Positions 25,279 through 54,853 of a stretch of 64,000 nucleotides of DNA are shown here, one piece after another. The stretch's first letter is position 1, and every line of letters begins with the position of its first letter. This DNA comes from Chromobacterium piscinae. Its GTDB lineage: Bacteria > Pseudomonadota > Gammaproteobacteria > Burkholderiales > Chromobacteriaceae. The translations under genes were made by a program, and so were the position numbers. The stretch spans positions 124,001 through 188,000 of the forward strand of contig NZ_JAJOHV010000058.1 in the NCBI RefSeq assembly GCF_021129175.1, given 5' to 3'. Under the pieces are notes generated by a model. The model saw only the letters and a program-made list of their open reading frames with translations. It was not told the DNA's origin and made no database searches.

Positions 25279-26229
25279 TCATCTACAGTGCTTAATCACA
25301 TTTTCAAGATTTTTTGATGCCCTCCTCTGCTGGTTAAGAATTGTATAAATTTCTGACTTGGAAGATTTGGGTAGAACATATTTCAAATTTGTCGCCATCA
25401 TACCAGAAGGACCTATATCTATATAACACGCTGCCATTTCTTTTTCAGCCTTCGCAATAGTATCCGAAAAGAGCAAAGGTCTTCTAACAGCATTCCAAAA
25501 ATCAGACATTCCAATAGTCAGCAACTCATCTGTTCTTGCACAACAAATCAAAGGAATCGATGGCTTATTAGATAAAAAATTTAAATCCATTCTCATAAAC
25601 TCATTTTTCAAATGATCCATCCAATGTGAGTGATAAGCTCTAGAAACCGGCAAACGGTGAAAAGCAGCCCCTATGTCATTTAAATAATTCTCAACATCCA
25701 TCAAATCACATAACTGCAAAGAAATAGCAAAACTCAACCCATCATCTCGTGAAGCTAAGACAGTCTTCTCTTTCAACATAGAACTTCTGTAATACATTGT
25801 TGGATCAGCTAACACTATAATCATACATCCTTCATCACAACGCCTATTTAATAACGACATCATAGAGTATATGGTATCCAACGCCTGGCTCGAATCAAGG
25901 CATCTTGAAATCACACTTGATATAAATATCCCCAGGCTTGACGCAATGATTTTAGTTGGTTGTACACCATATTTCTCAAGCGTAGATACAAGCGCATATT
26001 CTATTATATAAATTCCCAAACTTGATAAAATTGGATCACTAAAAATTTCTGAGCCATCCCGTTTATCATCATAGATAATATCCACAATGGAAATGCCAAA
26101 GCGGTTTTCAATGATTAAACCTACCGTATTAATTTTCTCATAGAAGTATTCATTTTCATTATAAAGATCCACTCCCATTTGAAAATATTGGGATCCCTGC
26201 CCAGAAGCCATAAATATAACAGGCTTCAT
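25279..26229 (-). CDS. Trans-acting acyltransferase homologue with ASSLG instead of GHSLG (possible acyl hydrolase)
   Basis: A 316-aa FabD-fold protein of trans-AT PKS type. The N-terminus is the AT form (MASGQGSQYFQMGVDLY) and the catalytic His is in SRAYHSHWMD (about residue 200). The nucleophile elbow reads IIASSLGIF: Ser98 is kept, but the Gly-His before it are Ala-Ser and the Glu after it is Ile. In trans-AT clusters the second AT-like clade (PedC/PksC-like) includes acyl hydrolases that clear stalled chains, and this opening resembles that clade. It is therefore either an altered malonyltransferase or, more likely, a proofreading hydrolase. It is coupled to the upstream gene (ATGA at 26226-26229) and ends the operon. 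Confidence 0.8.
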   Translation of the reverse strand: MKPVIFMASGQGSQYFQMGVDLYNENEYFYEKINTVGLIIENRFGISIVDIIYDDKRDGSEIFSDPILSSLGIYIIEYALVSTLEKYGVQPTKIIASSLGIFISSVISRCLDSSQALDTIYSMMSLLNRRCDEGCMIIVLADPTMYYRSSMLKEKTVLASRDDGLSFAISLQLCDLMDVENYLNDIGAAFHRLPVSRAYHSHWMDHLKNEFMRMDLNFLSNKPSIPLICCARTDELLTIGMSDFWNAVRRPLLFSDTIAKAEKEMAACYIDIGPSGMMATNLKYVLPKSSKSEIYTILNQQRRASKNLENVIKHCR

Positions 26230-27095
26230 ACTCCACCTCTTTTAGACCTTATCGTCACCCAAATCGCAATAAAAACCACCAGTACCATGGATACACTATA
26301 TAGAGGGATTGGATCCACCAGCCAAATAGAGCACATCCAAAAAAAACTCAAAATTGACGATATCACAATGCTTTGCACAACACCTATTGCTATATAAACA
26401 AACCAACAAATTAAAAAACCAGATATAACAACACCAGAAAACCAAATTATGTCTTTCGCTGGAGAAAGTTTCACACTTTCTCCAGCCTCTGCCCTAGCTT
26501 TAATTCCCATTAAAAGCCTTCTTTCCATAATAAAATGAAAAGGAATTTCTAAGTAACTTGAAATACTCATCCAAATATTTTTTTTATTAGCAACTTCCTG
26601 ACTTCTAACAATCAAACGGGTTTGCTCATCAGATATACTCTTCAACAAAAATGTTCCCCACTTATCAAGCACAATACTTTCCTCTGGCTTAACATAAAGA
26701 ACTTTAAAGCTGTATGGAACAATGCTATGTTTTTCATTGATTGACCCACGAACCAAGTCTCCTACCTTTATTTCTTTAAACTCGGGGGTAATAGCATTCT
26801 GATAACGAGTTTCATATCCAAGCGCTTCTTCAATAAAGGAATAGCTATAAAACCCTCCTCTATCTGCCCCAAGTTGTATCAACCACTTCCACACTTCAGC
26901 TTTCGAAGTGTTAATTGTTATAGCTCTGGTCGCAGTAACCAGTAAATCTTTATTATCGCCAGCCATTGGCATGGAAATTTCTTTTTCTGTTGCCCCCCAC
27001 GTTGTAATACTAGGTCTCACAAAAAAACCATATATCGACAACTGAAACAAAGCAATAAAAATAACGATCAATATAGATTTAGCTAAATTAAGCAT
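26226..27095 (-). CDS. Membrane-anchored SRPBCC (START-like) protein
   Basis: A 289-aa protein with an N-terminal membrane helix (residues 5-27), a central SRPBCC/polyketide-cyclase-like domain (about 50-190) with the family stretch AEVWKWLIQLGADRGGFYSYSFIEE, and two or three C-terminal membrane helices (about 215-283). Similar membrane SRPBCC proteins are widespread and uncharacterised; the fold binds hydrophobic ligands. Its start overlaps the ACP-linker gene by 13 bp and its stop overlaps the AT gene by 4 bp, so it is firmly part of the PKS operon. A role in handling, cyclising or exporting the product, or in self-protection, is inference only. Confidence 0.8.
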   Translation of the reverse strand: MLNLAKSILIVIFIALFQLSIYGFFVRPSITTWGATEKEISMPMAGDNKDLLVTATRAITINTSKAEVWKWLIQLGADRGGFYSYSFIEEALGYETRYQNAITPEFKEIKVGDLVRGSINEKHSIVPYSFKVLYVKPEESIVLDKWGTFLLKSISDEQTRLIVRSQEVANKKNIWMSISSYLEIPFHFIMERRLLMGIKARAEAGESVKLSPAKDIIWFSGVVISGFLICWFVYIAIGVVQSIVISSILSFFWMCSIWLVDPIPLYSVSMVLVVFIAIWVTIRSKRGGV

Positions 27096-27901
27096 GTCAG
27101 CTTTTCCATTATTCCAGTCTTATTATCAACGTGCCTGCTCTCACCCAAAACCATATGCCAGTCAATATCGACTCCGAGCGACCAAAGGCCAGCAATTTTT
27201 TTCAATCCATTATCACAAATACTATCTCGTAAAAATTTTTTTGCATTGTTACATGAAGAAAAAATATCAATATTGCCAACCACTTCATTTAAATTTTCGG
27301 CATAAATATAGTTACTACTTTGTTCAGCAATAAAATAGTTAATTTCCTCCAACAATTCTTTACGATCATTAGCAATAATTGCCAAACGAGCCTTGCCGGG
27401 TCTACATAAGGAAATAAACTCAAACTCCAAAGCTTTAATTAAGTTTGGGTCATCCGAGGAATTATTTAAAAAATCGACAACACCATGCAGGATTTTCTTC
27501 AGTTGCCCATTGTCACTTGCAGAAAAAAATATTAGACGAGGTCGATCAGCAAAGACATCAGAAACAACAATCGGATAGTCACTAACATTTTCATAAGCCG
27601 ATTTAATTGATTGCAAACTTATCCTTGCAGTATCAATCTCTATTCGAAACCGATCATACAAATCGCTAGCAACATCGCGAACATTTTTATGACCATACAC
27701 GGTCACAGGTGAAAGCTTCAATTTAAAAAAATTATTTATCATGGACACAATATTCGTGACCATAATAGAATCCAAACCAAACTGACTAAGTGGTGAGTCT
27801 AAATAAAGAGTTTGCGATTCCTTATTCAATGTTTTCTTTACAATAAAGAGAATTTGCTCCAAAAAAATATCATAGCCAGTTCTTTTTTTTAATTGTTCCA
27901 T
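27083..27901 (-). CDS. Acyl carrier protein fused to an orphan KS-flanking linker
   Basis: A 272-aa protein. Residues 8-85 form an ACP with the phosphopantetheine Ser45 in SQFGLDSIMV. Residues about 118-255 resemble the alpha/beta linker that normally follows a trans-AT ketosynthase (RLIFFSASDNGQLKKIL, then LAIIANDRKELLEEI, then IAGLWSLGVDIDW). There is no ketosynthase between them, as if it had been cleanly deleted from an ACP-KS-linker protein. It could serve as a free ACP that docks to the PKS. Its start lies 2 bp after the 79-aa AT relic. Low GC, like its neighbours. Confidence 0.75.
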   Translation of the reverse strand: MEQLKKRTGYDIFLEQILFIVKKTLNKESQTLYLDSPLSQFGLDSIMVTNIVSMINNFFKLKLSPVTVYGHKNVRDVASDLYDRFRIEIDTARISLQSIKSAYENVSDYPIVVSDVFADRPRLIFFSASDNGQLKKILHGVVDFLNNSSDDPNLIKALEFEFISLCRPGKARLAIIANDRKELLEEINYFIAEQSSNYIYAENLNEVVGNIDIFSSCNNAKKFLRDSICDNGLKKIAGLWSLGVDIDWHMVLGESRHVDNKTGIMEKLTCLI

Positions 27902-27903
27902 AT

Positions 27904-28143
27904 TTATTTCCCGGCCTTTATATTTGCAATTAATTTCTTCAAAACAGTCCCAGGTCCAATCTCTTCAAATTTTACATCGCCGATGGATTTTAAATAACGA
28001 ATCGAAGCCAACCATTGCACAGAACTTGATAACTGCTTTCTAAGATTTAAAATAATCTCACTATCCTTATAAGGCCTAGCTGATAGCCCCTGCCCCATTC
28101 CAATATTCTGTGAGCCTTGCCCAGGGAAGACATATACCTTCAT
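27904..28143 (-). CDS. 79-aa acyltransferase relic (N- and C-terminal ends joined)
   Basis: The first 20 residues (MKVYVFPGQGSQNIGMGQGL) are the start of a FabD-type acyltransferase. The last 45 residues (from about SSSVQWLASIRYLK to FEEIGPGTVLKKL) are its C-terminal end. The whole catalytic core of about 220 residues, including the GHSxG Ser and the catalytic His, is absent. The frame is nevertheless open, with AGGAG six bases before the ATG at 28143, and the operon is preserved. It cannot be a functional acyltransferase. It is probably the remnant of the cluster's true malonyl-CoA AT after an in-frame deletion; a residual structural role cannot be excluded. Confidence 0.75.
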   Translation of the reverse strand: MKVYVFPGQGSQNIGMGQGLSARPYKDSEIILNLRKQLSSSVQWLASIRYLKSIGDVKFEEIGPGTVLKKLIANIKAGK

Positions 28144-28201
28144 ACATGCTCCTAAATAATGTTGTGTCAAGCCTTATTTATTAAAATCAATTTCTCAAAC
28201 A

Positions 28202-29578
28202 CTAATTTTTTACTAGTCCCATATTTTTAAATTTTGGAAAACCAACGATAGGAAAAAGTAGCAAAAAGATAGCCAATAGATATGCCAATATCCCGACGTA
28301 TAATGTGTAACGTATTCCATGCATGAAATTTGTTGTACTGGCAATAATACTGCCAAAAACGCCAACGCCGATTAAACTACCTAGTTGTCTGCTGGCATTA
28401 AAAGCTCCTGAAGCCAAACCAACGGAATCACATGTTATAGAGTGCATAGTAATACTCGTTAATGCTGGCATCGCAGTTGAAATACCAAACCCTAAAAACA
28501 TCAACGGCAAAATAAAATAATAGTAATCAGAGAAATTATCTATCACGAACAACAAACTAATGAATCCCAATGCCGCCAAACATAGCCCCACAAGAGCTGT
28601 CCTTGTAGCGTTGATGCTGCTAATCAGTCTTCCAGAAAAAAAAGCTGCCAATGGCATGACCAGTGTTAAAGGCGTTAAAGATAAGCCTGTTTCTAACACA
28701 CCATAACCACGTACCTGTTGAAAATATAAAGGCAGGATAAAAAATTCTCCATAAACTCCAAAATTCAGCAACAATCCATTTACAATACCTATACTAAAAC
28801 CATTCACTTTAAAAAACTTTAGCGGCAACATGGGATTTTTACAGCGAGACTCTACAAAAATAAACAGTAATGTTGAGAAAACAAAGAGTAAAAAACCTAT
28901 CAGCACCAATGGATTTTTCCAACCAAGATGGCCTAGTTCTATAATTACCAAAGCAAGTGAAGTAATGCTGAGGATGGCAAAAATTTGCCCTAGCCAATCG
29001 AAATATTTACGCTTAGATATAGATTGAATATTTTGTTTAAAATTGCCCGAGGTTAACAGCAAGCAAAGAATAGCAATCGGTACATTAACGAAGAATACGG
29101 CTCTCCAGCCCAATGAGCTGGTCAAGATAGCTCCCGCCATAGGGCCAATGGCAGCAGCAATGCCGCCGATTGCAGCCCAGATGCCAATCGCTTTGGAGCG
29201 AGCAGTATGCTCATCAAAGCCCATATGAATCAACGCTAGCGAACTTGGTACTATAAGTGCAGCAGCAATGCCCTGAAAAACGCGGAATATCGTCAGTAGC
29301 GTAGGAGAGCTAACTAATCCACAAAACAATGAGGTTATCGCAAAAGATGCAATACCTAAACGAAACAAGTGTTTACTATTAAATTGATCGCTTAAATAGC
29401 CCGCACTTAATAAAAGACCTGCAAAACTCAGGGTATAACCGTCAACAATCCATTGTAGCCAAGAAACACTCGTATGCAACTGTGTAGCTAACGTAGGTAA
29501 GGCAACATTAACGATGGTGACATCCATGATAACCATGAAAAAACCAAGGCATAACGCAATTAGTGTTATTGATTTCAT
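28202..29578 (-). CDS. DHA2-family MFS exporter (EmrB/QacA type)
   Basis: A 458-aa transporter with about fourteen hydrophobic segments, typical of DHA2 drug:proton antiporters. TM1 carries MDVTIVNVALPTL, the DHA2 motif D1; motif A is GYLSDQFNSKHLFRLG, and motif C (GPMAGAILTSSLGWRAVFFVNVP) is intact. It is the first gene of the second transcription unit, with its own promoter, and probably exports the polyketide or gives self-resistance. No membrane-fusion partner (EmrA) is present. The start at 29578 lacks a clear Shine-Dalgarno sequence. Low GC like the PKS genes. Confidence 0.9.
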   Translation of the reverse strand: MKSITLIALCLGFFMVIMDVTIVNVALPTLATQLHTSVSWLQWIVDGYTLSFAGLLLSAGYLSDQFNSKHLFRLGIASFAITSLFCGLVSSPTLLTIFRVFQGIAAALIVPSSLALIHMGFDEHTARSKAIGIWAAIGGIAAAIGPMAGAILTSSLGWRAVFFVNVPIAILCLLLTSGNFKQNIQSISKRKYFDWLGQIFAILSITSLALVIIELGHLGWKNPLVLIGFLLFVFSTLLFIFVESRCKNPMLPLKFFKVNGFSIGIVNGLLLNFGVYGEFFILPLYFQQVRGYGVLETGLSLTPLTLVMPLAAFFSGRLISSINATRTALVGLCLAALGFISLLFVIDNFSDYYYFILPLMFLGFGISTAMPALTSITMHSITCDSVGLASGAFNASRQLGSLIGVGVFGSIIASTTNFMHGIRYTLYVGILAYLLAIFLLLFPIVGFPKFKNMGLVKN

Positions 29579-29605
29579 GTCATGTATATTCGAAGTGGCA
29601 GAGAG

Positions 29606-29633
29606 AGGATAAAATGCATTTCTATTATGTCAA
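29606..29633 (-). promoter_or_regulatory. Putative sigma70 promoter of the exporter operon
   Basis: On the minus strand a perfect TTGACA (29633-29628) is followed after 16 bp by TATCCT (29611-29606), placing the start of transcription about 20 bp before the exporter ATG at 29578. The shared 27-bp element ends 12 bp upstream of the -35 box, a position suited to an activator. Confidence 0.55.
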
Positions 29634-29645
29634 ACCACAAGTTAG

Positions 29646-29672
29646 TTGAATATATGCAAAATATCATGGTTT
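29646..29672 (-). promoter_or_regulatory. Shared 27-bp upstream element, copy 1 (exporter operon)
   Basis: This element matches the one at 55149-55175 at 25 of 27 positions in the same orientation. It includes TATGCAAAAT and TCATGGTTT on the plus strand. It lies upstream of the exporter promoter. The other copy lies upstream of the first PKS gene. It is a candidate binding site for a common regulator, for example the response regulator at 23.8 kb. Confidence 0.6.
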
Positions 29673-29715
29673 ATTTAATACAAGGCAATATTAAACTCTA
29701 CTAATACTTCTTTTG

Positions 29716-29772: not shown

Positions 29773-29803
29773 ATAGGATAAAATATTTAAATAACCATAT
29801 ATA

Positions 29804-32197
29804 TCAGAACTTACCATACCATTTAGAAAATAAATTTTTATCCTCATTGGTATTCAATTTATTTACATCAAGCGCTCCGGACACAAGTTGATCAAATTTT
29901 TTATTTATCCAGTAATCACTTTCGCTAAACTGATGTTTCGCGAGGGGGGCACGTTTCACATCTGCACGGTCATTTAAATACTCCTCCAATATTATGTGCG
30001 CATTCACCCCACTCAATCCAAATGAACTTATACCTGCCCGACGTGGCAATGATGCACCGAATTTATCTTTAATCATATTCCATCGTTGGTTTTCTCGAAC
30101 GACAAAAAATGGGCTTTCATCTAAATTGAGATCTGGATTAATCGAATCACAATGAATAGTTTTCACTAACATCTCATTTTTCATTTGATAAACAACTTTG
30201 ATGAGGCTAGCCATTCCAGAGGCCAACTCTGTATGTCCAATATTTGATTTTACAGATCCAATAGCACAATTTTTTGTGCTCTGACCAGAAGCTTTCTCAT
30301 AACCCAATGTTCTAAATGCTGATTTTAACCCCTCAATTTCAACCGCATCACCTAGTTCAGTCCCCGTACCGTGAGTTTCTATATAATTGACCGTATTAAT
30401 ATCTATCCCAGCGCGTTTGTAAACACTTTCCAACAAAGCAGCTTGAGCTTTTGGGTTAGGAGCGGTAAGGAAATTCCCCCTACCATTATGATTTACCCCG
30501 CTCCCTCGAATAACCGCATAAATTTGATCATTATCTTTTTCTGCTATGCTCAAGCGTTTTAAGACAATAACGCCAATTCCCTCAGCACGGACAAATCCAT
30601 CAGCATTGGATGAAAATGGCTTACATTTACCCTCATTGCTCAACAAACCTGCTTTATTCAAGCTCGCATGCCCATATGGCGTTACTATCAAATTAACACC
30701 ACCAACAATAGCAATATCACAGACGCCATTATTAATCTCATTAATTGCCCGATGAATGGCAACCAAAGAACTAGCACAAGCCGTCTCAACCGGCTCGCTC
30801 GGTCCATGTAAGTCGAAGAAGAAACTAACTCGATTTGCACCCACCGAAGGCATATATCCTGTCAAAAATTTTGCATCTAATTCTCTCCCAGAGTTTGCGA
30901 CAATGGCATCATAGCCATTATTCCCAATAGCTACGAACACCCCTGCATTGATATTACTCAATGTCTTGCAATTATATCCTGCATCTTCAATAGCCTTATA
31001 CGCGTAAGTCAACAGCAAGCGTTGCTGCGGATCCATGATTTCAGCTTCATTATCAGAAAGGCCGAAAAATCCCGGGTCAAATTTTTGTAGTCCTTCAATG
31101 AATCCACCCCACATTATATTTTTTTCCTCTGGAGCTTCATCAATATAAGCCATCCAACCTTTACGCTCATACGGAACTCCAGATATACAGTCTTTTCCTA
31201 ATAGCAGGTTGTCCCAATACTCCTCAAGATCATTGGATTTTGGAAACTTTCCACTCATACCGATAATTGCGACCGACTCATTTCCTTTATTAGCGTTAGG
31301 ATTAAAATCAATTCCAACAGAAGTAATACTAATATTCTCTTCAACCACACCTAACTCATCAAGCAATTCAATTGCACTATAAAATTTACAAAGCTCTTTA
31401 TGATACTCTTCATGCATATAACTGGTTAACGCACCAATCGTCAAATTTGAGAACAATTGGGCAGGCGTAATCTGAAAATTAAAATGATTTGATATACCTC
31501 TAGCACACTTAACTAAACTAACTGAGTCAAGACCGAAATCTGATAGGTTAGTATTAACATCCAATTTTTCAAGCGGTACTTTTAATATTTGGTGAGCAAT
31601 TTTTATTAAATCATTTTCTGTTTTTTTCCGCAGATTCAATTCATCAATACTCCTCGATTCCGATGAGAGTTCCTTATAACCACCTGATGAGTGATTCTGA
31701 ATTGAAAAAGACTCCGTACAATTTGGCCAGTACCGTTCTCTCTCAAAAGAATAAGAAGGCAAGCTTATTTTATTTGGCATGACACCACTATACAAAAACA
31801 TCCAATTTAGCTTATTACCAGAAATCCAATGCTCAACAATTTTTACCAAATTCCCCTGAGAATGCCAATCCTTAATAATATCTTTATGAACTTCTTTCAT
31901 TTTCTCACGATTTTTATTTTCCTGTATTTCACCAATAAAAATATCGTCTAAAAATTCAAGCTTGCCATTATCATTCAGAATAATATTAAGCTTTTTAATA
32001 AGCTCTGGTACTGTTTCAACAATAAATGCCATTCTAAATTTCATGGCATCGCGGCCAACTTGTAACGTATATGCAATATTTTCTATACTAGTTTTGTCAG
32101 ATAAATTTTCGTCATCGCTAAGAAAATGAAACAAATTAAAGGCATTTCGTTTAAGCGCAGCAGTAGACTTTGCAGAAAAGGGAATAATATATTTCAT
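29804..32197 (-). CDS. Trans-AT PKS protein: KS linker - ACP - KS (no thioesterase)
   Basis: A 797-aa protein. Residues 1-157 are a KS-flanking linker ending in LPSYSFERERYW, with no KS in front of it. Residues 190-262 are an ACP (Ser225 in FGLDSVSL). Residues 307-740 are a ketosynthase with Cys474 (ETACASS), His609 (ETHGTGT) and His655 (NIGHTE), all intact. A short tail (APLAKHQFSESDYWI) resembles the end of a post-KS linker, and then the protein stops without TE, C or other release domain. It begins 17 bp after the previous gene, whose product ends at the end of a KS, so the module is split between KS and linker. It is the last gene of the main PKS operon. Confidence 0.85.
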   Translation of the reverse strand: MKYIIPFSAKSTAALKRNAFNLFHFLSDDENLSDKTSIENIAYTLQVGRDAMKFRMAFIVETVPELIKKLNIILNDNGKLEFLDDIFIGEIQENKNREKMKEVHKDIIKDWHSQGNLVKIVEHWISGNKLNWMFLYSGVMPNKISLPSYSFERERYWPNCTESFSIQNHSSGGYKELSSESRSIDELNLRKKTENDLIKIAHQILKVPLEKLDVNTNLSDFGLDSVSLVKCARGISNHFNFQITPAQLFSNLTIGALTSYMHEEYHKELCKFYSAIELLDELGVVEENISITSVGIDFNPNANKGNESVAIIGMSGKFPKSNDLEEYWDNLLLGKDCISGVPYERKGWMAYIDEAPEEKNIMWGGFIEGLQKFDPGFFGLSDNEAEIMDPQQRLLLTYAYKAIEDAGYNCKTLSNINAGVFVAIGNNGYDAIVANSGRELDAKFLTGYMPSVGANRVSFFFDLHGPSEPVETACASSLVAIHRAINEINNGVCDIAIVGGVNLIVTPYGHASLNKAGLLSNEGKCKPFSSNADGFVRAEGIGVIVLKRLSIAEKDNDQIYAVIRGSGVNHNGRGNFLTAPNPKAQAALLESVYKRAGIDINTVNYIETHGTGTELGDAVEIEGLKSAFRTLGYEKASGQSTKNCAIGSVKSNIGHTELASGMASLIKVVYQMKNEMLVKTIHCDSINPDLNLDESPFFVVRENQRWNMIKDKFGASLPRRAGISSFGLSGVNAHIILEEYLNDRADVKRAPLAKHQFSESDYWINKKFDQLVSGALDVNKLNTNEDKNLFSKWYGKF

Positions 32198-32214: not shown

Positions 32215-34497
32215 TTAATTAACATATTCTTCAATAACGATATGCGCATTACTGCCACTAAAACCAAAAGAACTAACTGCCGCCAATCGCTTATTTCCTT
32301 CAGTCGTCCTCCAGGGTCTATTTTCTTTATTTACAATAAATGGCGAGTTAGTGAAATCAATATTCTTATTTACATTGCTATAATTGATTGAAGGTACAAA
32401 CTCCTGGTACTTAAGGCATAAAAGCACCTTGATTATCCCAGCGACTCCAGCGGAATAAACAGCATGGCCTATATTTGATTTCAATGAGCCGATTACGCAG
32501 TATTCTTTTTTATCAGTAAATTTTTCAAAAGCCCCTTTTAGTCCTTGTATTTCTATAGGGTCCCCCAAAACAGTACCTGTACCATGCGCCTCCACATAAC
32601 CAATTTTTTCTGGGTTAAGGTTGTATTTTTTATAAACATCCCTGAGGAGATTCTCCTGTGAAATCGCACTTGGTGCCGTTATCCCGTTTGTTTTACCATC
32701 TTGGTTAATACCACTTCCTTTTATAACACCCCAAATATTGTCACCTGCCTCGATTGCATGAGATAATTTCTTCAGCAAAATTACACCACACCCCTCTGAG
32801 AAAACAGTGCCATTTGCTCGCTGATCAAACGTATGGCAACGACCGTCTTTTGACTGCATACCTATCTGTGAAGTTAATATCTGCTTTAATGGGCTGGAAA
32901 ATATATTTATGCCACCGGCAATTGCCAAATCATTTTCACCACTTCTAATGCTCTCAGCAGCTAAGTGAATTGCTGTTAATGATGATGAGCAAGAAGTATC
33001 AACAGCAAGGGATGGGCCCTTCAAGTTCAAAAAATAAGATATTCTGGCAGCCAACACAGCAGAAGAGGTGCCCGGAAAAGATTGAGCCTCCCAATGTTTA
33101 TTCGCTTTAGTTAAAACCTGTAAATAATCTCCTTCCGCACAACCAACATATACACCGCATTTTGTATTCTCCAGCGAGCTTGGTGCATATCCTGCATTTT
33201 CTATCGCACTCCACGCTTCTTCCAAGAATATCCGCTGTTGCGGATCCATCAATTCTGCTTCGGCAGGAGATATATTAAAAAATAATGGATCAAAACAATC
33301 ATAACTCTCAATAAATCCACCAAATTTGGAGCTAGCCGTTCCATAATTTTCAACTTCAGGATGATACCAATCACCAAATTCAGCCCATCTTCCAGCAGGG
33401 ACTTCTTCTATACAATCTTTCCCAGTTTTAAGAAGTCTCCAAAAATCTATGAAATTATTACTCTTTGGAAATCGACATGCTATGCCAATAATGGCAATAT
33501 CTTCATTTACTGTCTCTAAATTCGACACATTCTCTATTTCACCAGTAATCTTATTTTTATAATTAATTATCTTTTGAGCATTAACTTTTTGTAGCTTAAA
33601 GTTAGTAATCTCAAACACAAGATCGCCATTGACGTTTGTTATTTGCAGACAACATTCTGTAATATTTTTAGTAGCCCTCACAAGTTTAACTATGCATCGA
33701 TATTCTTTCTCCGTAAAGGACGTATACAATTTGAGACCATCAATGCTATATGGTAAAAAATAATTCTCACCAGCATAAAAAGGCTCATTCACACAATGAG
33801 ATGAAAAGGTGATTGCACTGCCTATTGCTGCATTGATGATCCGTGGACTCATTGAAAACTGTTGATCATGTTCTAAAATCGAAATTTCACCAATTGCATA
33901 CCCATTAAAAAAATTCAAACTTCGTAACGAACGATAGAAACTCCCCAAATAAATATTTGCATCTCTTTGATAAAAATATTCAACATCAAAATTCTCAATA
34001 ATAGACTCTTCTGGAAAACTCATGCCTTTCTTTATCAAACCATTCACAACATTAGAAGCAATACCTCTTACATGTATTTTTTCTTTTTTTGATACATCGT
34101 CATTAGAAACTAATTTAAATATGTAATCACCGTTGCTTTGTTTGATATACAATCGTACAAAAACATCTGTTCTCTTATTTTCAACAATCGGATTTGACAT
34201 GATGACGTTACTCATCGCAATACAGTCCAATCCCAAATAAGCCTGGAAGGCGACATAAACTAATTCTAAATAAACATCCGCAGAAATGCAGGGTGTATCA
34301 TTTACAATATGATCACGAAAACAGACATTATTTTTCGTACTCAACCTATAACCAATAACTAATTCACCCTCCGGAGAGCTATCATCGCTAATTTTTTCTC
34401 CGAGTAATAACTTATTCTTGAATAAAGCACCGGCATCAATTTGCAACGACGCGGGTCTATTTTGACCAATGACTCTTCTTACTCCCTTATTAGGCAT
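32215..34497 (-). CDS. Trans-AT PKS protein: degenerate DH - KS
   Basis: A 760-aa protein. Residues 45-300 form a double-hotdog (DH-like) domain. His63 is kept in FRDHIVND, but the Gly and Pro of HxxxGxxxxP are lost and the second active-site region (SPRIINAAIGSA) has no Asp, so dehydration is unlikely. Residues 332-758 form a ketosynthase with Cys503 (VDTSCSSS), His638 (EAHGTGT) and His678. The segment after that last His (NIGHAVYSAG) departs from the usual NIGHLEAAAG. The protein ends right after the KS, with the linker supplied by the next gene. It overlaps the stop of the 3002-aa PKS gene by 8 bp. Confidence 0.85.
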   Translation of the reverse strand: MPNKGVRRVIGQNRPASLQIDAGALFKNKLLLGEKISDDSSPEGELVIGYRLSTKNNVCFRDHIVNDTPCISADVYLELVYVAFQAYLGLDCIAMSNVIMSNPIVENKRTDVFVRLYIKQSNGDYIFKLVSNDDVSKKEKIHVRGIASNVVNGLIKKGMSFPEESIIENFDVEYFYQRDANIYLGSFYRSLRSLNFFNGYAIGEISILEHDQQFSMSPRIINAAIGSAITFSSHCVNEPFYAGENYFLPYSIDGLKLYTSFTEKEYRCIVKLVRATKNITECCLQITNVNGDLVFEITNFKLQKVNAQKIINYKNKITGEIENVSNLETVNEDIAIIGIACRFPKSNNFIDFWRLLKTGKDCIEEVPAGRWAEFGDWYHPEVENYGTASSKFGGFIESYDCFDPLFFNISPAEAELMDPQQRIFLEEAWSAIENAGYAPSSLENTKCGVYVGCAEGDYLQVLTKANKHWEAQSFPGTSSAVLAARISYFLNLKGPSLAVDTSCSSSLTAIHLAAESIRSGENDLAIAGGINIFSSPLKQILTSQIGMQSKDGRCHTFDQRANGTVFSEGCGVILLKKLSHAIEAGDNIWGVIKGSGINQDGKTNGITAPSAISQENLLRDVYKKYNLNPEKIGYVEAHGTGTVLGDPIEIQGLKGAFEKFTDKKEYCVIGSLKSNIGHAVYSAGVAGIIKVLLCLKYQEFVPSINYSNVNKNIDFTNSPFIVNKENRPWRTTEGNKRLAAVSSFGFSGSNAHIVIEEYVN

Positions 34498-47494: not shown

Positions 47495-47496
47495 GA

Positions 47497-50400
47497 TCAT
47501 TCACCTGTGATATTGTCCATTTCGGACTTTAAAAGATTTAATAATTCATCTTTCTCAACATTATCAAATTCCGATAAATTATGAGTTTTTGAGCTTTCTT
47601 GTGCTGCTGTATTATTTGAAATATCTATTTTGAAATGATCTATTAATAAATGATTTGTGAGGAGTCTTAACGTATTGTAATCAAACAATGCCGTCGTCGT
47701 AACCTTGACACCGACAATTTTTTTGATCTTATTTCTAAAATCAATAGAAGTCAGAGAGTCCATGCCCAAATCAAAGAAACCTGTGTTATCGTCTATGCTG
47801 TCTTTATGTGAGATACTCAGAATCTCGACGAAGATAGATTTCAGCTCATCAAGAATGAACAAGTATTTTTCATCATTCGATAGATAAGTAGATAGCTTTT
47901 CTGGAAATTGATTGTCACTACTTGCTTTTATCTCTATAACATCAGGCGAAATTCCAAGCTTTTCAAGCAGTGTTACTTTCCTGTTGGTATTCATCACCTC
48001 TAGAAATAACGGCCACTCCACAGGCGCTACAACTTTTTTCCTGTCAAAGGATGCCAAAATGGATTCTAGCTGTTGCAGCCCCACTTTTGGTGACGTTTCT
48101 TTAATACCAATGGACCCGAAATAACTAACTTTATTCTCGGGAATAATTCCGCTGTCTTTCCACATCCCTCCCCAGCTAATGCTTATAGCTGGGAAGTTAT
48201 ATATCTCGCCATAATCTGCATAAGCATCCAAAAAGTAGTTTGCTGCACTGTAGTGGCCACCAGTCGCCGCCCCCCAAACCGATGCGCATGAAGAGAACAT
48301 AACAAACCAATCCAATTGGCATACCTTGAACACCTCATTCAGTACCCATGTACCCTCAACTTTCATCGACGTAACATTATAAAATTCATCAAATGTCATA
48401 TCTTGCAATAGACACTCTTTATATGATCCCGCCAAGTGAAATACACCGCTTAATTCATTTCCCTTAATGTAAGAGTTTTTAACGGCCCGCATTTGATCCA
48501 AGCTACTCACATCTGCTCGAATAGTTTCAACCGTTGTCCCCCGACCTTCAATCAACTTGATAGCTTCACGCTGTGCATCTTGCTCCACTCCTCGTCGGCT
48601 AAGTAATAATATTTTCTTAACCTTAAATGATGAAAGCCATTCAGCTACCAATAAACCCAAACTACCCAAACCACCTGTAATGAGATATACACCGTTTGGA
48701 TTGATTTCTATCGGTTTTTTAGGTTCAACTTTACTTGGGGTAAGGCGGGGAACATAACGGATATTTTTTCTATATACAATTTCACCCTCTTCCGACAGAC
48801 TACTTGTTTCTTTATAGAGTTGATTTAAATTTAACCGCTCACTAATATCAACATCTATAATGGATCGAAATATAAACGGATGCTCAACTAGCAGCGTCTT
48901 TGCCATGCCCCATAAAGGTGCACAATGTAAATTTACTTTTCCCGTTGCAATTTTTTGAACATTTGCACAAATAGTCCAGAGATATAATTTGATTTCTTGT
49001 TGTACCGCTACCAGCGACTGAAGTTGCTCCAACGCTGTCTGACATGCAAAGCGGTAATCTGTCGAAAGTGAAGTTAAGGATGGGATTGCTGGATCAGTTT
49101 TAATATCAAGAGGCCAAAAATTGATGACACATAGCGCTTTATTTTTCGTCTTTGCAACAATATCGTGGAGTGCCTTCAGATAGCTATTTTTATCCCCTGG
49201 TGTAACAATATAAGTATCGTCACAGTGATCATCTGTACCTTTGTAATTGACTTTATATGTCTGAATATTTTTTTTACGAAGAAGATCATAAAATTCTTGA
49301 CCAACGCCCTGATTATCGCAAAACAAAAGATACGCCTTATCCTTTATCAGCTCACCTTCCACAAGCGGCATTTCATACCAATTTATATCATAGGTATCTC
49401 GTATTAAATTTTCAGTGCCGGCAGATTCTTTTTGTTCTATCTTATTTATCCAATGATATGCTTTTTCAAATGGGTAGCTAGGTAGAGATACTTTTTTGGC
49501 TTGACTATTTCTATTATATAATTCGCGCCACTCTACATCAGCGCCTAAAATCCAAAGCTGAGCCAGGTGATACAGATCATTATTATTTAAGTAATGCTTT
49601 TCTAAATCTAACATTCCTTTTCTATCAAAGCCAAATATAATATTCGATAACTCACTCTTCACTTGATTAAAATATATACTGACTTTTTTTTGCTTGTCTG
49701 TACTTATGTCATCGCGTAGAAAACTAGATAAACTCTCTATCAAATCATTCTTTTCACTACTAATTACGGCTAATCTATAATCGAATGGCTCCCTAGCAGT
49801 TTGTAAGGTATATGCCATATCATTCAAATTAAATTTTGTGTCTTGCTTAGATAGGAAGCCGCGATAGTAATCTATATAACTTCTCAATGCATTTTCTGTT
49901 TTTGCTGAAAAAATAAAAATATTCGGACCTGACACTATATGATCATCACTATGAATTGCATCGTACTCCTCAAGTACAACGTGTGCATTCACACCACCAA
50001 ATCCAAAGGAACTAACACCTGCACGCCTAGGAATATCCTCCCCCATTTGATCTTTAAGCGCTTCCCACTCGGTAGTATTTCCAATCAGATAAAATGGACT
50101 TTCTTCTAAAAAAATATTTTTATTCTGCTTTGATAGATGTAAATGTGCTGGAATTTTCTTATGCTGCATTGACAATAAAACCTTGATCACTCCTGCAAGC
50201 CCCGCAGCAGCTTCCAAATGGCCAATATTTGTTTTCACAGATCCTAAAGCACAGTACGGCCTTGTTTCTATATTTGAACGATTGCTTAAAGTTTTAAAAG
50301 CTGAGACAAGCCCATTTATTTCAATCGGATCCCCTAAAGAGGTGCCAGTACCGTGGGTCTCCACATAACTTATCGTTTTAGGACATATTTTTGCCATCTT

Positions 50401-52542
50401 CACAGCATCTTCAATAACCTCCGCCTGAGCGAAAGGATTTGGCGCTGTTAATGAATTAGTATGGCCGCCATGATTAACCGCAATCCCTTTTATTAACCCA
50501 TAAACATGATCTTTATCCGAAATGGAAGAGCTCAACTTTTTAAGAACAATCGCTGCAATGCCTTCCCCTCTAACATAACCATCAGCGGACTCATCAAAAG
50601 TCTTGCACTGTCCTGATGGACTAAGCATATTGGCATTTGATAACGCCACATAAATGCTTGAGCTCAATAATAAATTCGCGCCACAAACAATCGCAATTTC
50701 ACACTCATTGTTTCTTATCAAGCCCGCTGCGCGATGCAGAGCAACAAGCGAGGATGAGCAAGCTGTATCAACAGATTCACTAGGTCCTTTGAAATTAAAT
50801 AGATAGGAAATACGGTTGGACGCCATGCAATGCACAGTTCCTGTCGCAGCATATGCATGAGTAAATTGATCATTTTCCAAAACTAATTGCAGGTAATCAA
50901 ATGTTCCAATACCAACTATGACTCCTACTTTCTGCCCTGATAAATCTCGCATTCGATATCCAGCGTCTTCAACAGCTTGCCAAACAACCTGGATCAGTTT
51001 CCTTTGCATCGGATCCATAAGCTGGGCTTCTTTTGGTGATATATTAAAAAAAGAAGCATCAAATGTTTCGACATCATTTATGAACCCGCCCCATTTTATA
51101 TTTGTTTTTCTATTTTTATTATCTGGGTCACCGTAAATTTCCTTCCAATCCCATCTGCTTCCAGGTATCTCGGAAATCAGATCTCGGCCTTGCTCAAGAT
51201 TATTCCAAAATTCTTCACAATTGTCTGATTGAGGAAATAGACCTGCCAGGCCAATAACAGCAATAGGATCATCTTCCTTTTCCGATACACATTTATCATT
51301 TATATTTTTACGTAAATCTTTATTTTCTATTCTATTTAAAATATAAAGCTGATCAAACTTCTTATAGCCTAGGTCATTTGTTTTGATAATTTCTTTATTT
51401 ACCTCATTTTTTATATAGATTTGTACTTCACCTATCTCGCCATCTTTGCACACCCTATTTGAAGCTATATCGATTACTTTGACATCATTTCGACTTAATA
51501 TTTTCCCGCTACTTGTAATAGCTGATGAGTCATAAAAATGATCAAGTCTACTTGCACTGATTAACGGAATCTCAGCCATCCCAAAACAAGGATAGAAAGA
51601 TTGCATACAAAATCCATAATGCTGATATTTAATACTAAAATTATTAATTACTTCACGTTTTAAAACTTCCGCTCCAACATAGGCGACTGACCAAGTCGAC
51701 AAGTCCAGATCTTCTGGAAGCTCTTCTGGTAAAAGCGTTCCACACATGTCATAAAAAAATGTTGGCCCACCAGCGAATGTGATGCCATATCTTGAAATGG
51801 CAGCGAGCCAAGCAGATGGGGAAAAAATAACTCCCGTGTTGGAATACACATAGGACGTAATGCCAGAATAAAAAGGCTGCAATATTCCATAGAATAGCCC
51901 CATGTAATGATGATAAGGGGCCCAGTTTAATGCACGACTATCTTTTGATAGTTCAAAAGTATTTTGGATTTCTTTGGAGTGATATATCAGGTCTGCATGA
52001 CTATGCGGAATATATCGCGACGATTCTGACGTGCGCATGATCAGCGCCGTATTATTTTTTTCCTCAGTTATTTTTTGCGCTGCCGTACTGTGCTCTTTAC
52101 TACTTATATTTTCATAAACAACGAATCTAATAGAAGTCAAATCAAAATGATTTTCTGCTAGGTTATTGATTTGATCTAAAATTTTCTGTGTTGTTAATAT
52201 CGTATTGGTATTTGTGTCTCTAGCGACCGCCAACAAACCTCCAATATATTCAGCTTTTGAAAATTCACTTGGTGCTGGCAATGGAACCGCTACGGTATTG
52301 CTATAAAGAACGCCAAACAGCGCATGTATAAAATCACTATTATTTTGAAATAGCAAAATTATATTGCCAGTTTCTGGAACTTGATATTGAATCTCTGATG
52401 CAATGAGTGATGCTTTGTTTAGAAGATTTACATTAGTTATTTTATCGATTTGCTCACCACGATCATTCAGCATTTTATAAGCGACAAAATTTGGGGCCTC
52501 TTTTGAACGCTTAAGAAGAATTTCCACTAATTCGTTAGTCAT
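47497..52542 (-). CDS. Trans-AT PKS protein: defective AMP-ligase-like domain - KS - KR - ACP
   Basis: A 1681-aa protein. Residues 1-415 resemble a fatty acyl-AMP ligase (FAAL/FACL): the WAPYHHYMGLFYGIL and FGMAEIPLISASR stretches are recognisable. The nucleotide-binding A3 loop reads ALIMRTSESSRYIPHSH, without the GSTG and Lys of active enzymes, and the C-terminal lobe stops after IKTNDLGY...ILNRIEN. KS 425-860 is intact (Cys595, His730, His775), linker 870-1032, KR about 1048-1510 with GGLGSLG, Lys1394, Ser1417/1418, Tyr1431 and Asn1435. ACP has Ser1596. No ACP sits between the AMP-ligase-like domain and the KS, so even a working ligase would have no carrier in cis. It overlaps the upstream gene by 8 bp and the downstream gene by 4 bp (or ends beside it). 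Confidence 0.88.
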   Translation of the reverse strand: MTNELVEILLKRSKEAPNFVAYKMLNDRGEQIDKITNVNLLNKASLIASEIQYQVPETGNIILLFQNNSDFIHALFGVLYSNTVAVPLPAPSEFSKAEYIGGLLAVARDTNTNTILTTQKILDQINNLAENHFDLTSIRFVVYENISSKEHSTAAQKITEEKNNTALIMRTSESSRYIPHSHADLIYHSKEIQNTFELSKDSRALNWAPYHHYMGLFYGILQPFYSGITSYVYSNTGVIFSPSAWLAAISRYGITFAGGPTFFYDMCGTLLPEELPEDLDLSTWSVAYVGAEVLKREVINNFSIKYQHYGFCMQSFYPCFGMAEIPLISASRLDHFYDSSAITSSGKILSRNDVKVIDIASNRVCKDGEIGEVQIYIKNEVNKEIIKTNDLGYKKFDQLYILNRIENKDLRKNINDKCVSEKEDDPIAVIGLAGLFPQSDNCEEFWNNLEQGRDLISEIPGSRWDWKEIYGDPDNKNRKTNIKWGGFINDVETFDASFFNISPKEAQLMDPMQRKLIQVVWQAVEDAGYRMRDLSGQKVGVIVGIGTFDYLQLVLENDQFTHAYAATGTVHCMASNRISYLFNFKGPSESVDTACSSSLVALHRAAGLIRNNECEIAIVCGANLLLSSSIYVALSNANMLSPSGQCKTFDESADGYVRGEGIAAIVLKKLSSSISDKDHVYGLIKGIAVNHGGHTNSLTAPNPFAQAEVIEDAVKMAKICPKTISYVETHGTGTSLGDPIEINGLVSAFKTLSNRSNIETRPYCALGSVKTNIGHLEAAAGLAGVIKVLLSMQHKKIPAHLHLSKQNKNIFLEESPFYLIGNTTEWEALKDQMGEDIPRRAGVSSFGFGGVNAHVVLEEYDAIHSDDHIVSGPNIFIFSAKTENALRSYIDYYRGFLSKQDTKFNLNDMAYTLQTAREPFDYRLAVISSEKNDLIESLSSFLRDDISTDKQKKVSIYFNQVKSELSNIIFGFDRKGMLDLEKHYLNNNDLYHLAQLWILGADVEWRELYNRNSQAKKVSLPSYPFEKAYHWINKIEQKESAGTENLIRDTYDINWYEMPLVEGELIKDKAYLLFCDNQGVGQEFYDLLRKKNIQTYKVNYKGTDDHCDDTYIVTPGDKNSYLKALHDIVAKTKNKALCVINFWPLDIKTDPAIPSLTSLSTDYRFACQTALEQLQSLVAVQQEIKLYLWTICANVQKIATGKVNLHCAPLWGMAKTLLVEHPFIFRSIIDVDISERLNLNQLYKETSSLSEEGEIVYRKNIRYVPRLTPSKVEPKKPIEINPNGVYLITGGLGSLGLLVAEWLSSFKVKKILLLSRRGVEQDAQREAIKLIEGRGTTVETIRADVSSLDQMRAVKNSYIKGNELSGVFHLAGSYKECLLQDMTFDEFYNVTSMKVEGTWVLNEVFKVCQLDWFVMFSSCASVWGAATGGHYSAANYFLDAYADYGEIYNFPAISISWGGMWKDSGIIPENKVSYFGSIGIKETSPKVGLQQLESILASFDRKKVVAPVEWPLFLEVMNTNRKVTLLEKLGISPDVIEIKASSDNQFPEKLSTYLSNDEKYLFILDELKSIFVEILSISHKDSIDDNTGFFDLGMDSLTSIDFRNKIKKIVGVKVTTTALFDYNTLRLLTNHLLIDHFKIDISNNTAAQESSKTHNLSEFDNVEKDELLNLLKSEMDNITGE

Positions 52543-54853
52543 TACTAAACCCTTTATGCGCCTCTATTATGTGTTGACCATATCCGCCGTGATTATAGAA
52601 TTCACTAAATCCGGCTTGATGTAGCACCATTTCCCAAGCCTCTAAGCTGAGTAATGGGCTATAAGGTATTCGGAAATTCTCTTCACCCAGCCACCATCCA
52701 TCAGTTAATCCAAAAGTTAACGTTGCATAATCATATCTTTCTGTCATTTCATTCAAAATCAACAGCCCATTATTTTTAAGCAACATGAAAATATTATTGA
52801 TACTTTGCTGCACGTTTTGTGTCGCATGGATAACATTGGTAGCTAAAACTATATCGACAGGTTGAATTTCCTCAGGGTTTTCTGCGTTAAAAATTCTATA
52901 TTCTATAAAATCGTAATTTGAAAATTCTTCTTTAGCTTTATTTAGAAAGGCAAAGGAAATGTCGGTATAGATATAATGCACCGACTTGCCGAATAATTTG
53001 GGTAAGACCTTCTCACTGGTACTACCAGTGCCTGCCCCAATCTCCAATATCCGCACTACCCTGCCATCTTTTGCATACTTATTGACATAAGTTTCAACAG
53101 CTTCCGCGACACGCTGGTTATAATAATCTGAAACTGGATTGTTACGATATGTAGGCTCTACTAACTCAAAGCTTCCATCAGGAAACATGATAGAAAGGGG
53201 ACTAATTTCATCGCAAAGAATGGAAGGCAAATTGTCGATACATGCATCCATTAATTTCAAATATCCTACTATTTCCGGATAGCTATCAATCAAATCTGCC
53301 CTTGCTGGTGATGGGGAGTATTCAATATGTGCCAAAGCTTCACATAACTTCCCATATTTTTGTGGGGCTGTAGACGTGGTTTGTACCTGATAGAATTTAT
53401 TTCTGGCGTAATTTGCCAGGGAGTCCATCATCCCCTTCGCATACAAAATATGATCTTGAGTGAAATCAAACTCAGGTAACAACCTACTTTTTTCAAAATT
53501 ATTTGCAATCTCTTCTTTTTTAATGACCCCCATACGGCACAAGGCATTGTCCGTTGCTTTTAACACAACAACTTGATCTAATTCTTTCTGCAAAGATTGT
53601 TCAATAACACTCAATATTTCTTCTGACGGAATTTCTCTGATCCCCTTATATTCCATCAAGTCACGATAAAAACGACTTTCTATGCCACGATCACCTAAAT
53701 TCCCCCAATTAATAATTCTTACTTTGATCCCAAGAGTATTCTTTATCAGATTTGCAATAGCCTCTCTAGCTAAACAGGCAGCAGTATAATTAGCTTGACC
53801 TAAATTAGTGACAAATGATTGAATAGCAGAGAAAAACAGTATAAAATCAAGCGATTTGTTGACTAACGCCTTCATTAAATTAATTGTACTTTTAACTTGT
53901 GGCGTCAATACATCGATTAGTTTTTTTTGCGACGTCGCAATTATTGGAGAATGATCAATTGCAAAATCGGCATGTATGATGCCATTGATGTTAGGATATT
54001 TTTCTATTATGTTTTTTAGGGTATTTTCTGCAGTTAAATCTCCATATTCACGTCTAATCTGCGCTCCGCCGCATCTCTCATCTTGTTCTTCCATCGAAGA
54101 ACTGTTAATCAAGATGATCTCTGCCTGATAGTTTTGACACAAATATTTTGCCAACAAAATATCCAGACCATTATGACCACCTATAATGAGATAGCATCCT
54201 TTATTTTTGAATCCGACAGGATTGACATGTGATGTAACTTCAATCGACTCGAGCTCAATAAAAGCATAACTTTCTTGCGTAAGGAATACAGGGGATAGTT
54301 GATTTGTGAATTTCTCGAGCTCGTCTAAACGTGATAGCACACCATGCGTTACGCTGTTAACGACGCAGTTGTTAACATGTACATTTGGGTTTTCTTTCGC
54401 AAATACTTTCACCAAACCAAGATAGACTGCATCAAGCGGGTTTGTAACAGCGCAGCCATTTGGCCCGTGCATAGCATTCACAATTACTACTGAAATTTTA
54501 AATTTGAGCAGATTATTCAGTGATTGCAGCCATTGTAAAAAAATACCGTGCTCTTCTTCATAGTATGGATTTGGCCACCCTGATTCGCTGATAAAAACAA
54601 TATGTGGGTTAGCTGATTGTCTGCATAATTCAAGAATTTTATTGAATGATGATTGATTCTTAAGCTCAATAATAGGACATGAAATCTCATTAAAATGATT
54701 TAGCACCAGCGCGTTTTGGTAACGCGAATCTAACGCGAATCTAACAACACAATCCGGACGGAAATGACCTTTTTTTTCCGTATCAAATTTTTTTTCTACC
54801 CAAGAGGGTTTAAATAATTTACTTCTCGAACAATCTAATCTTTTACTTTCCAT
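52535..54853 (-). CDS. PKS fragment protein: degenerate KR - C-methyltransferase
   Basis: About 772 aa from the ATG at 54853; the frame is open to 54949. Residues 10-440 form a ketoreductase that begins with the usual structural half (KLFKPSWVEKKF). It is degenerate: the cofactor motif is IIGGHNGLD instead of TGGxGxLG, and the catalytic Asn is Cys (ANYTAACLA), although Ser and Tyr remain. Residues about 470-765 are a SAM-dependent C-methyltransferase with motif I ILEIGAGTGST and the PKS-type FGLTDGWWLGEE. There is no KS before and no ACP after these domains, so it looks like the tail of a module whose KS is gone, or a methyltransferase acting in trans on the next protein. It is the first gene of the main PKS operon. 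Confidence 0.82.
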   Translation of the reverse strand: MESKRLDCSRSKLFKPSWVEKKFDTEKKGHFRPDCVVRFALDSRYQNALVLNHFNEISCPIIELKNQSSFNKILELCRQSANPHIVFISESGWPNPYYEEEHGIFLQWLQSLNNLLKFKISVVIVNAMHGPNGCAVTNPLDAVYLGLVKVFAKENPNVHVNNCVVNSVTHGVLSRLDELEKFTNQLSPVFLTQESYAFIELESIEVTSHVNPVGFKNKGCYLIIGGHNGLDILLAKYLCQNYQAEIILINSSSMEEQDERCGGAQIRREYGDLTAENTLKNIIEKYPNINGIIHADFAIDHSPIIATSQKKLIDVLTPQVKSTINLMKALVNKSLDFILFFSAIQSFVTNLGQANYTAACLAREAIANLIKNTLGIKVRIINWGNLGDRGIESRFYRDLMEYKGIREIPSEEILSVIEQSLQKELDQVVVLKATDNALCRMGVIKKEEIANNFEKSRLLPEFDFTQDHILYAKGMMDSLANYARNKFYQVQTTSTAPQKYGKLCEALAHIEYSPSPARADLIDSYPEIVGYLKLMDACIDNLPSILCDEISPLSIMFPDGSFELVEPTYRNNPVSDYYNQRVAEAVETYVNKYAKDGRVVRILEIGAGTGSTSEKVLPKLFGKSVHYIYTDISFAFLNKAKEEFSNYDFIEYRIFNAENPEEIQPVDIVLATNVIHATQNVQQSINNIFMLLKNNGLLILNEMTERYDYATLTFGLTDGWWLGEENFRIPYSPLLSLEAWEMVLHQAGFSEFYNHGGYGQHIIEAHKGFSND

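What the first reader, a model, noticed from the sequence alone, without database searches (positions are those of the whole stretch)
25279..54853. AT-rich trans-AT polyketide synthase locus with an unfamiliar domain order
About 30 kb of minus-strand PKS genes with AT-less modules sits between GC-rich core genes. I count six ketosynthases, all with Cys-His-His, three KRs (one degenerate), six DH-like domains, one C-methyltransferase and eight ACPs if the stand-alone one is counted. There is no integrated AT, ER or TE. I do not recognise a known product from this order: KR0-cMT / AMP-ligase*-KS-KR-ACP / KS-DH*-DH*-ACP / KS-DH-KR-ACP-DH*-ACP-KS-DH*-ACP-ACP / DH*-KS / linker-ACP-KS.
Basis: partly seen in the sequence, partly recalled or inferred. 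Interest (0 to 1): 0.8.

Follow-up and report, generated by a model that had tools for sequence, protein, structure and literature searches.

The report
Stripped-down Legionella-type polyketide gene cluster
A Chromobacterium genome carries a foreign, AT-rich set of genes for making an unknown polyketide; the same gene order exists in a Legionella relative, but this copy has lost the enzyme that loads its building blocks and the enzymes thought to add a side branch, so it is either dying or borrowing parts from a second cluster.

Summary
What it missed changes the picture. (1) The order is not unique: one Legionella-genus genome (G100, unnamed) carries the same cluster colinearly at 42-65% identity, and all six KSs pair one to one. 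(2) Against that copy this locus is reduced. The malonyl-AT is a 79-residue remnant, its active-site region deleted in frame. The β-branching cassette is missing from the locus, and HMGS from the assembly at E<=1e-10. One PKS gene is split, and KS6 has lost its linker domain. (3) The surviving 'AT' gene (25279-26229) looks like an acyl hydrolase. (4) The island fills an mltA/tRNA-Met/rpoD interval that is only 1.5-1.6 kb in three relatives. (5) A second trans-AT PKS (contig C12) keeps an intact stand-alone AT that could charge this line. So this is a horizontally acquired, partly dismantled orphan trans-AT PKS, a new member of a known kind with unknown product. Whether it still works is open.

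The parts
52535..54949 (-). P0001: KR0-cMT protein (KR0 53696-54199, cMT about 52580-53272), like the N-terminal part of lankacidin LkcC
   Evidence: Pfam; 48-49% to four Legionella records, 35-37% to Streptomyces LkcC; 57% to G100
47497..52542 (-). P0002: truncated FAAL*-KS1-LD-KR-ACP
   Evidence: 62% to G100; P-loop degraded and several small deletions in FAAL* against G100
43835..47500 (-). P0003: KS2-DH*-DH*-ACP; KS2 has no linker domain and sits in a clade with several KSs followed by an AT-like motif
   Evidence: 61% to G100, which also lacks this linker domain
34490..43498 (-). P0004: KS3-LD-DH-KR-ACP-DH*-ACP-KS4-LD-DH*-ACP-ACP; the last two ACPs carry a Trp six residues after the Ser
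   Evidence: 55% to G100, which has one terminal ACP where this locus has two
32215..34497 (-). P0005: DH*-KS5, ends right after KS5
   Evidence: first half of a single 1700-aa ORF in G100
29804..32197 (-). P0006: LD (of KS5)-ACP-KS6; KS6 linker domain missing (133-aa gap against G100)
28202..29578 (-). P0007: MFS exporter (EmrB type)
   Evidence: 65% to G100
27907..28143 (-). 79-residue remnant of the stand-alone malonyl-AT: counterpart of G100 AT residues 1-20 joined in frame to the counterpart of 222-281; active-site region absent
   Evidence: tblastn of G100 AT, 80% over residues 1-20 and 58% over 222-281; translation; alignment; seen again
27083..27901 (-). P0008: stand-alone ACP followed by a linker domain
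   Evidence: PP-binding E=6.9e-12; LD E=1.6e-12 with own HMM; 42% to G100
26226..27095 (-). P0009: protein without Pfam match, hydrophobic ends by eye; function not known
   Evidence: 58% to G100
25279..26229 (-). P0010: AT-family protein with acyl-hydrolase (PedC/PksD type) features: nucleophile motif ASSLG, Met opposite the AT Arg
   Evidence: criteria from PMC11775670 passages; 56% to G100
23797..24423 (+). LuxR-type response regulator at the left edge; link to the cluster not shown
   Evidence: Pfam GerE and Response_reg
55785..56015 (+). Possible fragment of a Mutator/IS256-type transposase at the right edge
   Evidence: PF00872 E=0.0039, 16.6 bits, below its cut-off of 21
56364..56442 (-). 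tRNA-Met bordering the island; homology to the short sites of G027 and G028 resumes at 56324 and 56323

Best explanation
The locus is a genomic island in a Chromobacterium, acquired from a Legionella-like donor, that carries an orphan trans-AT polyketide synthase. The fuller version, seen in a Legionella-genus genome, has its own malonyl-AT, an acyl hydrolase, a stand-alone ACP and a complete HMGS beta-branching cassette that would act on the Trp-flagged ACP at the end of P0004. Here the core megasynthase and the acyl hydrolase survive, but the AT is internally deleted and the beta-branching cassette is missing. If the line still runs, its ACPs must be charged by another AT, most likely the intact stand-alone AT of the second trans-AT PKS on contig C12 (or FabD), and the product cannot carry the HMGS-type branch. 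Shown: cluster orthology, the AT deletion, the missing cassette, the short site in relatives, the intact C12 AT. Inferred: direction of transfer, that the cassette was lost here rather than gained there, AT borrowing, and the effect on a product. My odds that it still makes a product are roughly even.
For: Colinear orthologue of P0001-P0006 plus counterparts of P0007-P0010 in G100, 42-65% identity; 6 of 6 KSs sister to their counterpart, support 1.0, in a 326-KS tree. G100 copy has a stand-alone KS (Ser for Cys, by eye), HMGS, two ECHs and a GHSLGE AT. AT remnant here. HMGS: no match in the own genome at E<=1e-10. Best own-genome match to the G100 stand-alone KS is 32%, the gene beside the FabD-like one on C3. 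P0010 fits two published acyl-hydrolase criteria. Intact AT at C12:11846-12673, 46% to the G100 AT. GC contrast. The mltA-rpoD interval is 34.8 kb here and 1.5-1.6 kb in G027, G028 and G013. 18 of 18 KS catalytic residues kept.
Against: Only one relative was found, so there is no outgroup: 'lost here' is well founded for the AT (a remnant exists) but is parsimony for the cassette. Not all differences point to decay on this side: the first DH of P0004 is canonical here but has Glu for Gly in G100, and P0004 has one ACP more here; the KR0, the truncated FAAL* and the LD-less KS2 are shared by both. At 42-65% identity G100 is not the direct donor, and losses could predate transfer. The HMGS result comes from a draft of 194 contigs (100% complete by estimate). 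The ECHs were not sought genome-wide. No expression data.
Confidence: 0.75

Rival explanations
1. The locus is a dead, decaying cluster that makes nothing; the open frames survive only because acquisition was recent.
For: AT active-site region deleted; HMGS missing; gene split and KS6 linker deletion; FAAL* P-loop and P0005 DH* motif degraded against G100; possible transposase fragment at the edge.
Against: Frames of 9.0, 5.0 and 3.7 kb are uninterrupted; 18 of 18 KS residues and the inspected KR and ACP residues are kept; the AT deletion keeps the reading frame and KS6 keeps its tail in frame.
Confidence: 0.45
2. The reduced line is functional and is charged by the AT of the C12 cluster, giving an unbranched congener.
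For: Intact AT with GHSLGE on C12; catalytic residues of the core kept; acyl hydrolase and exporter kept.
Against: No test of AT-ACP recognition; the line also lost the linker domain of KS6, and no TE was found.
Confidence: 0.4
3. The cluster is a lankacidin-family cluster.
For: P0001 is 37% identical to LkcC over 705 residues.
Against: The other window-Lkc matches are KS, KR and ACP-level similarities of 19-43%; no window KS is sister to an Lkc KS, and the immediate tree neighbours of LkcA, LkcC, LkcF and LkcG hold no window KS.
Confidence: 0.03
4. The odd order is an assembly artefact.
For: Draft genome of 194 contigs.
Against: The same order is found independently in another genus; the island lies inside a 221-kb contig with host genes on both sides.
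Confidence: 0.02

Closest known systems
   Same: Same order of P0001-P0006 genes and domains, plus counterparts of the MFS exporter, ACP-LD, P0009 and acyl hydrolase; each KS pairs with its counterpart
   Different: G100 has a malonyl-AT, a stand-alone KS, HMGS, two ECHs, a MatE-family protein and a cyclase-like protein nearby; P0005+P0006 are one ORF; KS6 keeps its linker; one terminal ACP in P0004 instead of two; some accessory genes lie in other places and on the other strand
Lankacidin PKS (LkcC), Streptomyces griseofuscus pSGRIFU1 (called lankacidin from its gene order, recalled)
   Same: KR0-cMT part of LkcC, 35-37% identity, with the same Asn-to-Cys change in the KR
   Different: Different gene set and domain order, and no KS of the window groups directly with a lankacidin KS
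Beta-branching trans-AT PKSs with an HMGS cassette, such as bongkrekic acid
   Same: Tandem Trp-flagged ACPs and a stand-alone ACP (PMC12560621 passages)
   Different: No HMGS in the genome at E<=1e-10; no stand-alone KS or ECH among the ten proteins of the locus scanned
Legioliulin (product of a Legionella trans-AT PKS; seen in PMC5126622 passages)
   Same: trans-AT PKS from Legionella
   Different: Not compared here; its sequence and architecture were not examined

Membership tests
trans-AT polyketide synthase | Elongation modules without integrated AT | tested here: met
   No Acyl_transf_1 in P0001-P0006
trans-AT polyketide synthase | Stand-alone extender-loading AT encoded with the cluster | tested here: not met
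   Only a remnant without active site in the locus; an intact AT lies in another cluster on C12. The relative G100 meets it
trans-AT polyketide synthase | KS Cys-His-His triads | tested here: met
   18 of 18 residues
trans-AT polyketide synthase | KS clades that predict substrates (transATor) | not testable with these tools
   No transATor reference set; own 326-KS tree shows orthology only
Acyl hydrolase (PedC/PksD type), P0010 | G(A/S/V)SL instead of GHSL and no Arg at the FabD-117 position | tested here: met
   ASSLG here, GSSLG in G100, Met opposite the AT Arg in this alignment; other Arg residues lie five and six columns on, so the second criterion depends on the alignment; criteria in PMC11775670 passages
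HMGS-type beta-branching pathway | Trp-flagged acceptor ACP | tested here: met
   DSIGALTW and DSISAVVW in P0004; the flag is named in PMC12560621 passages, its exact spacing is recalled
HMGS-type beta-branching pathway | HMGS, stand-alone KS decarboxylase and ECH1 | tested here: not met
   HMGS: no match in the own genome at E<=1e-10. Stand-alone KS: best own match 32%, a FabF-like gene on C3. In four stretches between genes only chance-level HMGS matches of 18 and 28 residues, E 0.04-0.05. ECH not sought genome-wide
Fatty acyl-AMP ligase, N-terminus of P0002 | C-terminal domain and intact P-loop | tested here: not met
   No C-terminal-domain hit; TSESS without the Lys where G100 has TSGSS...K
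Lankacidin-type cluster | LkcA/B/D/E/F/G counterparts in order | tested here: not met
   Only P0001-LkcC matches over several domains at 37%; P0010-LkcD is 19%; KSs not sister to Lkc KSs; LkcE was not compared
Same cluster as G100 | Colinear orthologues | tested here: met

The most novel reading that the evidence does not exclude
The island works after discarding its own AT: a foreign trans-AT PKS that now depends on the AT of a resident, separate trans-AT PKS. It would make an unbranched version of the Legionella-type product after deletions that leave the core in frame. If so, this is evolution caught in the act of turning one assembly line into a client of another.
Probability: 0.35. Interest if true: 0.6.

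Novelty: new member of a known kind. Interest (0 to 1): 0.4.

Why it matters
It pairs a fuller and a stripped copy of one trans-AT PKS in two distant genera. That makes it possible to ask which parts of such a line are dispensable after transfer and whether two lines in one cell share an AT. It also warns that domain counting alone can hide that a cluster lacks its loading enzyme.

Tried and rejected
Rejected: lankacidin family. P0001 alone is LkcC-like; KS6 is 43% identical to the LkcA KS in BLAST but does not group with it in the tree, so my idea that KS6 and P0001 form a lankacidin-type split module is not supported by phylogeny. Rejected: 7zma as a special relative of P0003; its high score comes from two KSs in one chain. 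Rejected: P0010 as the missing extender AT. Led nowhere: the search for related loci with P0003 alone (16 stretches matched a pattern, none a relative). The P0003 DH*-DH* stretch matched only G100 in 143 genomes of G100's order and only the window's own genome in 369 sampled genomes of the class. P0010 matched, besides its own genome (itself and a second gene on C176), one other of 398 sampled phylum genomes at E<=1e-40, 29% identity. A second copy of the tRNA-side sequence at the island's left edge was sought and not seen; the only hits in the window were short (10-14 bases, and one of 28 bases within the tRNA side itself). No structure prediction was run. Rows dropped: 39 of 326 KSs with fewer than 200 residues downstream were left out of the linker-domain count; short KS matches (span of 370 or less) were left out of the tree; overlapping weaker tblastn hits were dropped, 11 of the 79 loci were compared. 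In one search the tool scored at most eight candidates per genome.
Full report
What is there. The window lies in a draft genome of 5.0 Mb in 194 contigs. Its genus includes Chromobacterium sphagni: KS places found in same-genus genome G025 (contigs C36, C87, C97) recur with the same start coordinates in the genome behind the named C. sphagni locus. GC falls to 0.33-0.39 from 26 to 54 kb, against 0.61-0.71 for 1-22 kb and 0.58-0.66 for 56-64 kb. 18 of 18 KS catalytic residues are present. Eight ACPs are confirmed, one of them stand-alone.

Catalytic detail. P0001's KR has a degraded cofactor motif and carries Cys in place of the catalytic Asn; LkcC shares the Asn-to-Cys change. The KRs of P0002 and P0004 look intact. 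Of the DH-like domains only the first in P0004 keeps HxxxGxxxxP and DxxxQ; the second in P0004 keeps the first motif only; both in P0003, the last in P0004 and the one in P0005 are degenerate (motifs recalled). The first DH* of P0003 is degenerate but strongly conserved between this locus and its relative, so it probably has some role.

The relative. P0002's FAAL* stretch was searched in 45 genomes of the genus of the L. shakespearei genome. 39 of 45 matched at E<=1e-20, but one, G100, stood out at 53% (365 bits; next 35%, 167 bits). Its contig holds the whole cluster: P0001 to P0004 in the same order, P0005 and P0006 as one 1700-aa ORF, plus counterparts of P0007 to P0010. Aligned identities are 57 (P0001), 62 (P0002), 61 (P0003), 55 (P0004), 55 (P0005+P0006), 65 (P0007), 42 (P0008), 58 (P0009) and 56% (P0010). 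In a tree of 326 KSs from the fetched loci every window KS is sister to its G100 counterpart, 6 of 6, support 1.0. The cluster seems rare: the P0003 DH*-DH* stretch matches 1 of 143 genomes in G100's order and, in 369 sampled genomes of the class, only the window's own. In one search, 16 of 61 family genomes (own included) matched P0002, but the best match outside the own genome covers residues 422-1036 of 1681 only.

What was lost. G100 carries a stand-alone KS (Ser where the catalytic Cys should be, by eye), an HMG-CoA synthase, two enoyl-CoA hydratases and a canonical AT (Pfam). In the window the AT is a 79-residue remnant beside P0008, the position it has in G100. Counterparts of G100 AT residues 1-20 and 222-281 are joined in frame, without the active site; a genome search sees the same remnant. 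HMGS has no match in the own genome at E<=1e-10, although 4 of 19 genus genomes have one. The best own-genome match to the stand-alone KS is 32%, a FabF-like gene beside the FabD-like one on C3. The ECHs were not sought genome-wide; none is among the ten locus proteins scanned. KS6 lacks its linker domain (133-aa gap) and P0005/P0006 are separate. FAAL* has lost P-loop residues, and P0005's DH* has lost motif residues that G100 keeps. Against a simple decay story: the first DH of P0004 is canonical here but not in G100, and P0004 ends in two Trp-flagged ACPs here but one in G100.

Acyl hydrolase, not AT. PMC11775670 (passages seen) states that acyl hydrolases often carry G(A/S/V)SL instead of GHSL and have Gln or another residue for the FabD Arg117. 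P0010 has ASSLG and its G100 counterpart GSSLG, both with Met opposite the Arg that the G100 AT, the C12 AT and LkcD keep beside GHSLG. The Met depends on this alignment, as Arg residues lie a few columns on. A second gene of this kind, 34% identical to P0010, lies on contig C176.

A possible supplier. Contig C12:11807-73937 holds a second PKS of seven large proteins (GC of its ORFs 0.44-0.57) and an intact stand-alone AT that is 46% identical to the G100 AT; no other place on C12 matches that AT at E<=1e-5, so I take it for a trans-AT PKS; a FabD-like gene at C3 is 32%. It is a separate cluster, but not wholly unrelated: one C12 KS and one thiomarinol-plasmid KS (pTML1, product recalled) are the nearest neighbours of KS3 (support 0.91). 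That the C12 AT charges this line is inference.

Insertion. mltA and rpoD (names by family knowledge) were found in 19 of 19 genus genomes and lie on one contig in 16 of 19. The gap is 34.8 kb here; 1.5, 1.6 and 1.6 kb in G027, G028 and G013; and 2.1 to 56.7 kb in the other twelve. In G027 and G028 homology stops at window 22401 and 22219 and resumes at 56324 and 56323, next to the tRNA-Met. The interval is thus variable, and this island is absent from those sites. A possible Mutator-type transposase fragment lies at the right edge (PF00872, below cut-off). No integrase was recognised, though the small ORFs of the flanks were not all searched, and no flanking repeat was found.

Origin of parts. 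P0001 is 48-49% identical to proteins of four Legionella records, which also hold KSs grouping with LkcG and LkcF. KS2 groups with KSs of three of those Legionella genomes (support 0.94), inside a clade that also holds KSs followed by an AT-like motif. Together with GC this points to a Legionella-like donor, but G100 is too distant to be the donor itself. 20 of 287 KSs with enough downstream sequence lack a linker domain by my HMM, so the LD-less KS2 is uncommon, not unique.

How it would work. By family knowledge and the cassette scheme in PMC12560621 (passages), the fuller line would install a beta-branch on the Trp-flagged ACP after KS4. Here that cannot happen without an outside cassette. 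KS6 has no ACP after it and P0001 has none either, so P0008 may serve as the last ACP or, in the fuller line, as the donor ACP; this is inference. Release is unexplained: no TE was found in the window genes, and none among the nine G100 accessory proteins scanned.

Literature. Searches with Chromobacterium, Chromobacteriaceae, Legionella, trans-AT, gladiolin, lankacidin, beta-branching and FabD terms listed no paper that I recognised as describing this cluster: 0 papers, 12 of 12, 12 of 12, 9 of 9, 5 of 5, 12 of 261, 6 of 6 and 10 of 40 were listed; most were seen as listings only. PMC5126622 was seen in passages; it reports legioliulin and a trans-AT PKS unique to another Legionella, which could not be compared. 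PMC7930024 was seen in one passage.

Noticed in passing
L050-L053, L061, L054, L055, L058, L062, L063, L070: LkcC-like KR0-cMT proteins occur in four Legionella records, an uncultured Coxiella, Hahella, Haematospirillum, two Pseudomonas and two Alphaproteobacteria MAGs; KSs of the Legionella and Coxiella loci group with lankacidin LkcG (support 1.0) and LkcF (0.85), so lankacidin-type PKSs seem to exist outside Streptomyces.
   Followed up: partly
G000:C12:11807-73937 (L029-L032): A second PKS of seven large proteins with an intact stand-alone AT in the same genome.
   Followed up: partly
window 21746-56363: The mltA/tRNA-Met/rpoD interval is variable: 1.5 to 56.7 kb in the 16 of 19 genus genomes where both genes share a contig; in G018 a second partial copy of the tRNA-side sequence lies nearer mltA (L039:2741-2833).
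   Followed up: partly
G000:C176:260-1195: A second acyl-hydrolase-like gene, 34% identical to P0010, on another contig; possibly a stray piece of a PKS cluster.
   Followed up: no
window 45101-45925: First DH* of P0003 has a degenerate but strongly conserved active-site region (IREHRIFD, then IVLTGSI) in both genera; unknown role.
   Followed up: no
window 26226-27095: P0009, a conserved protein with hydrophobic ends and no Pfam match, kept in both copies.
   Followed up: no
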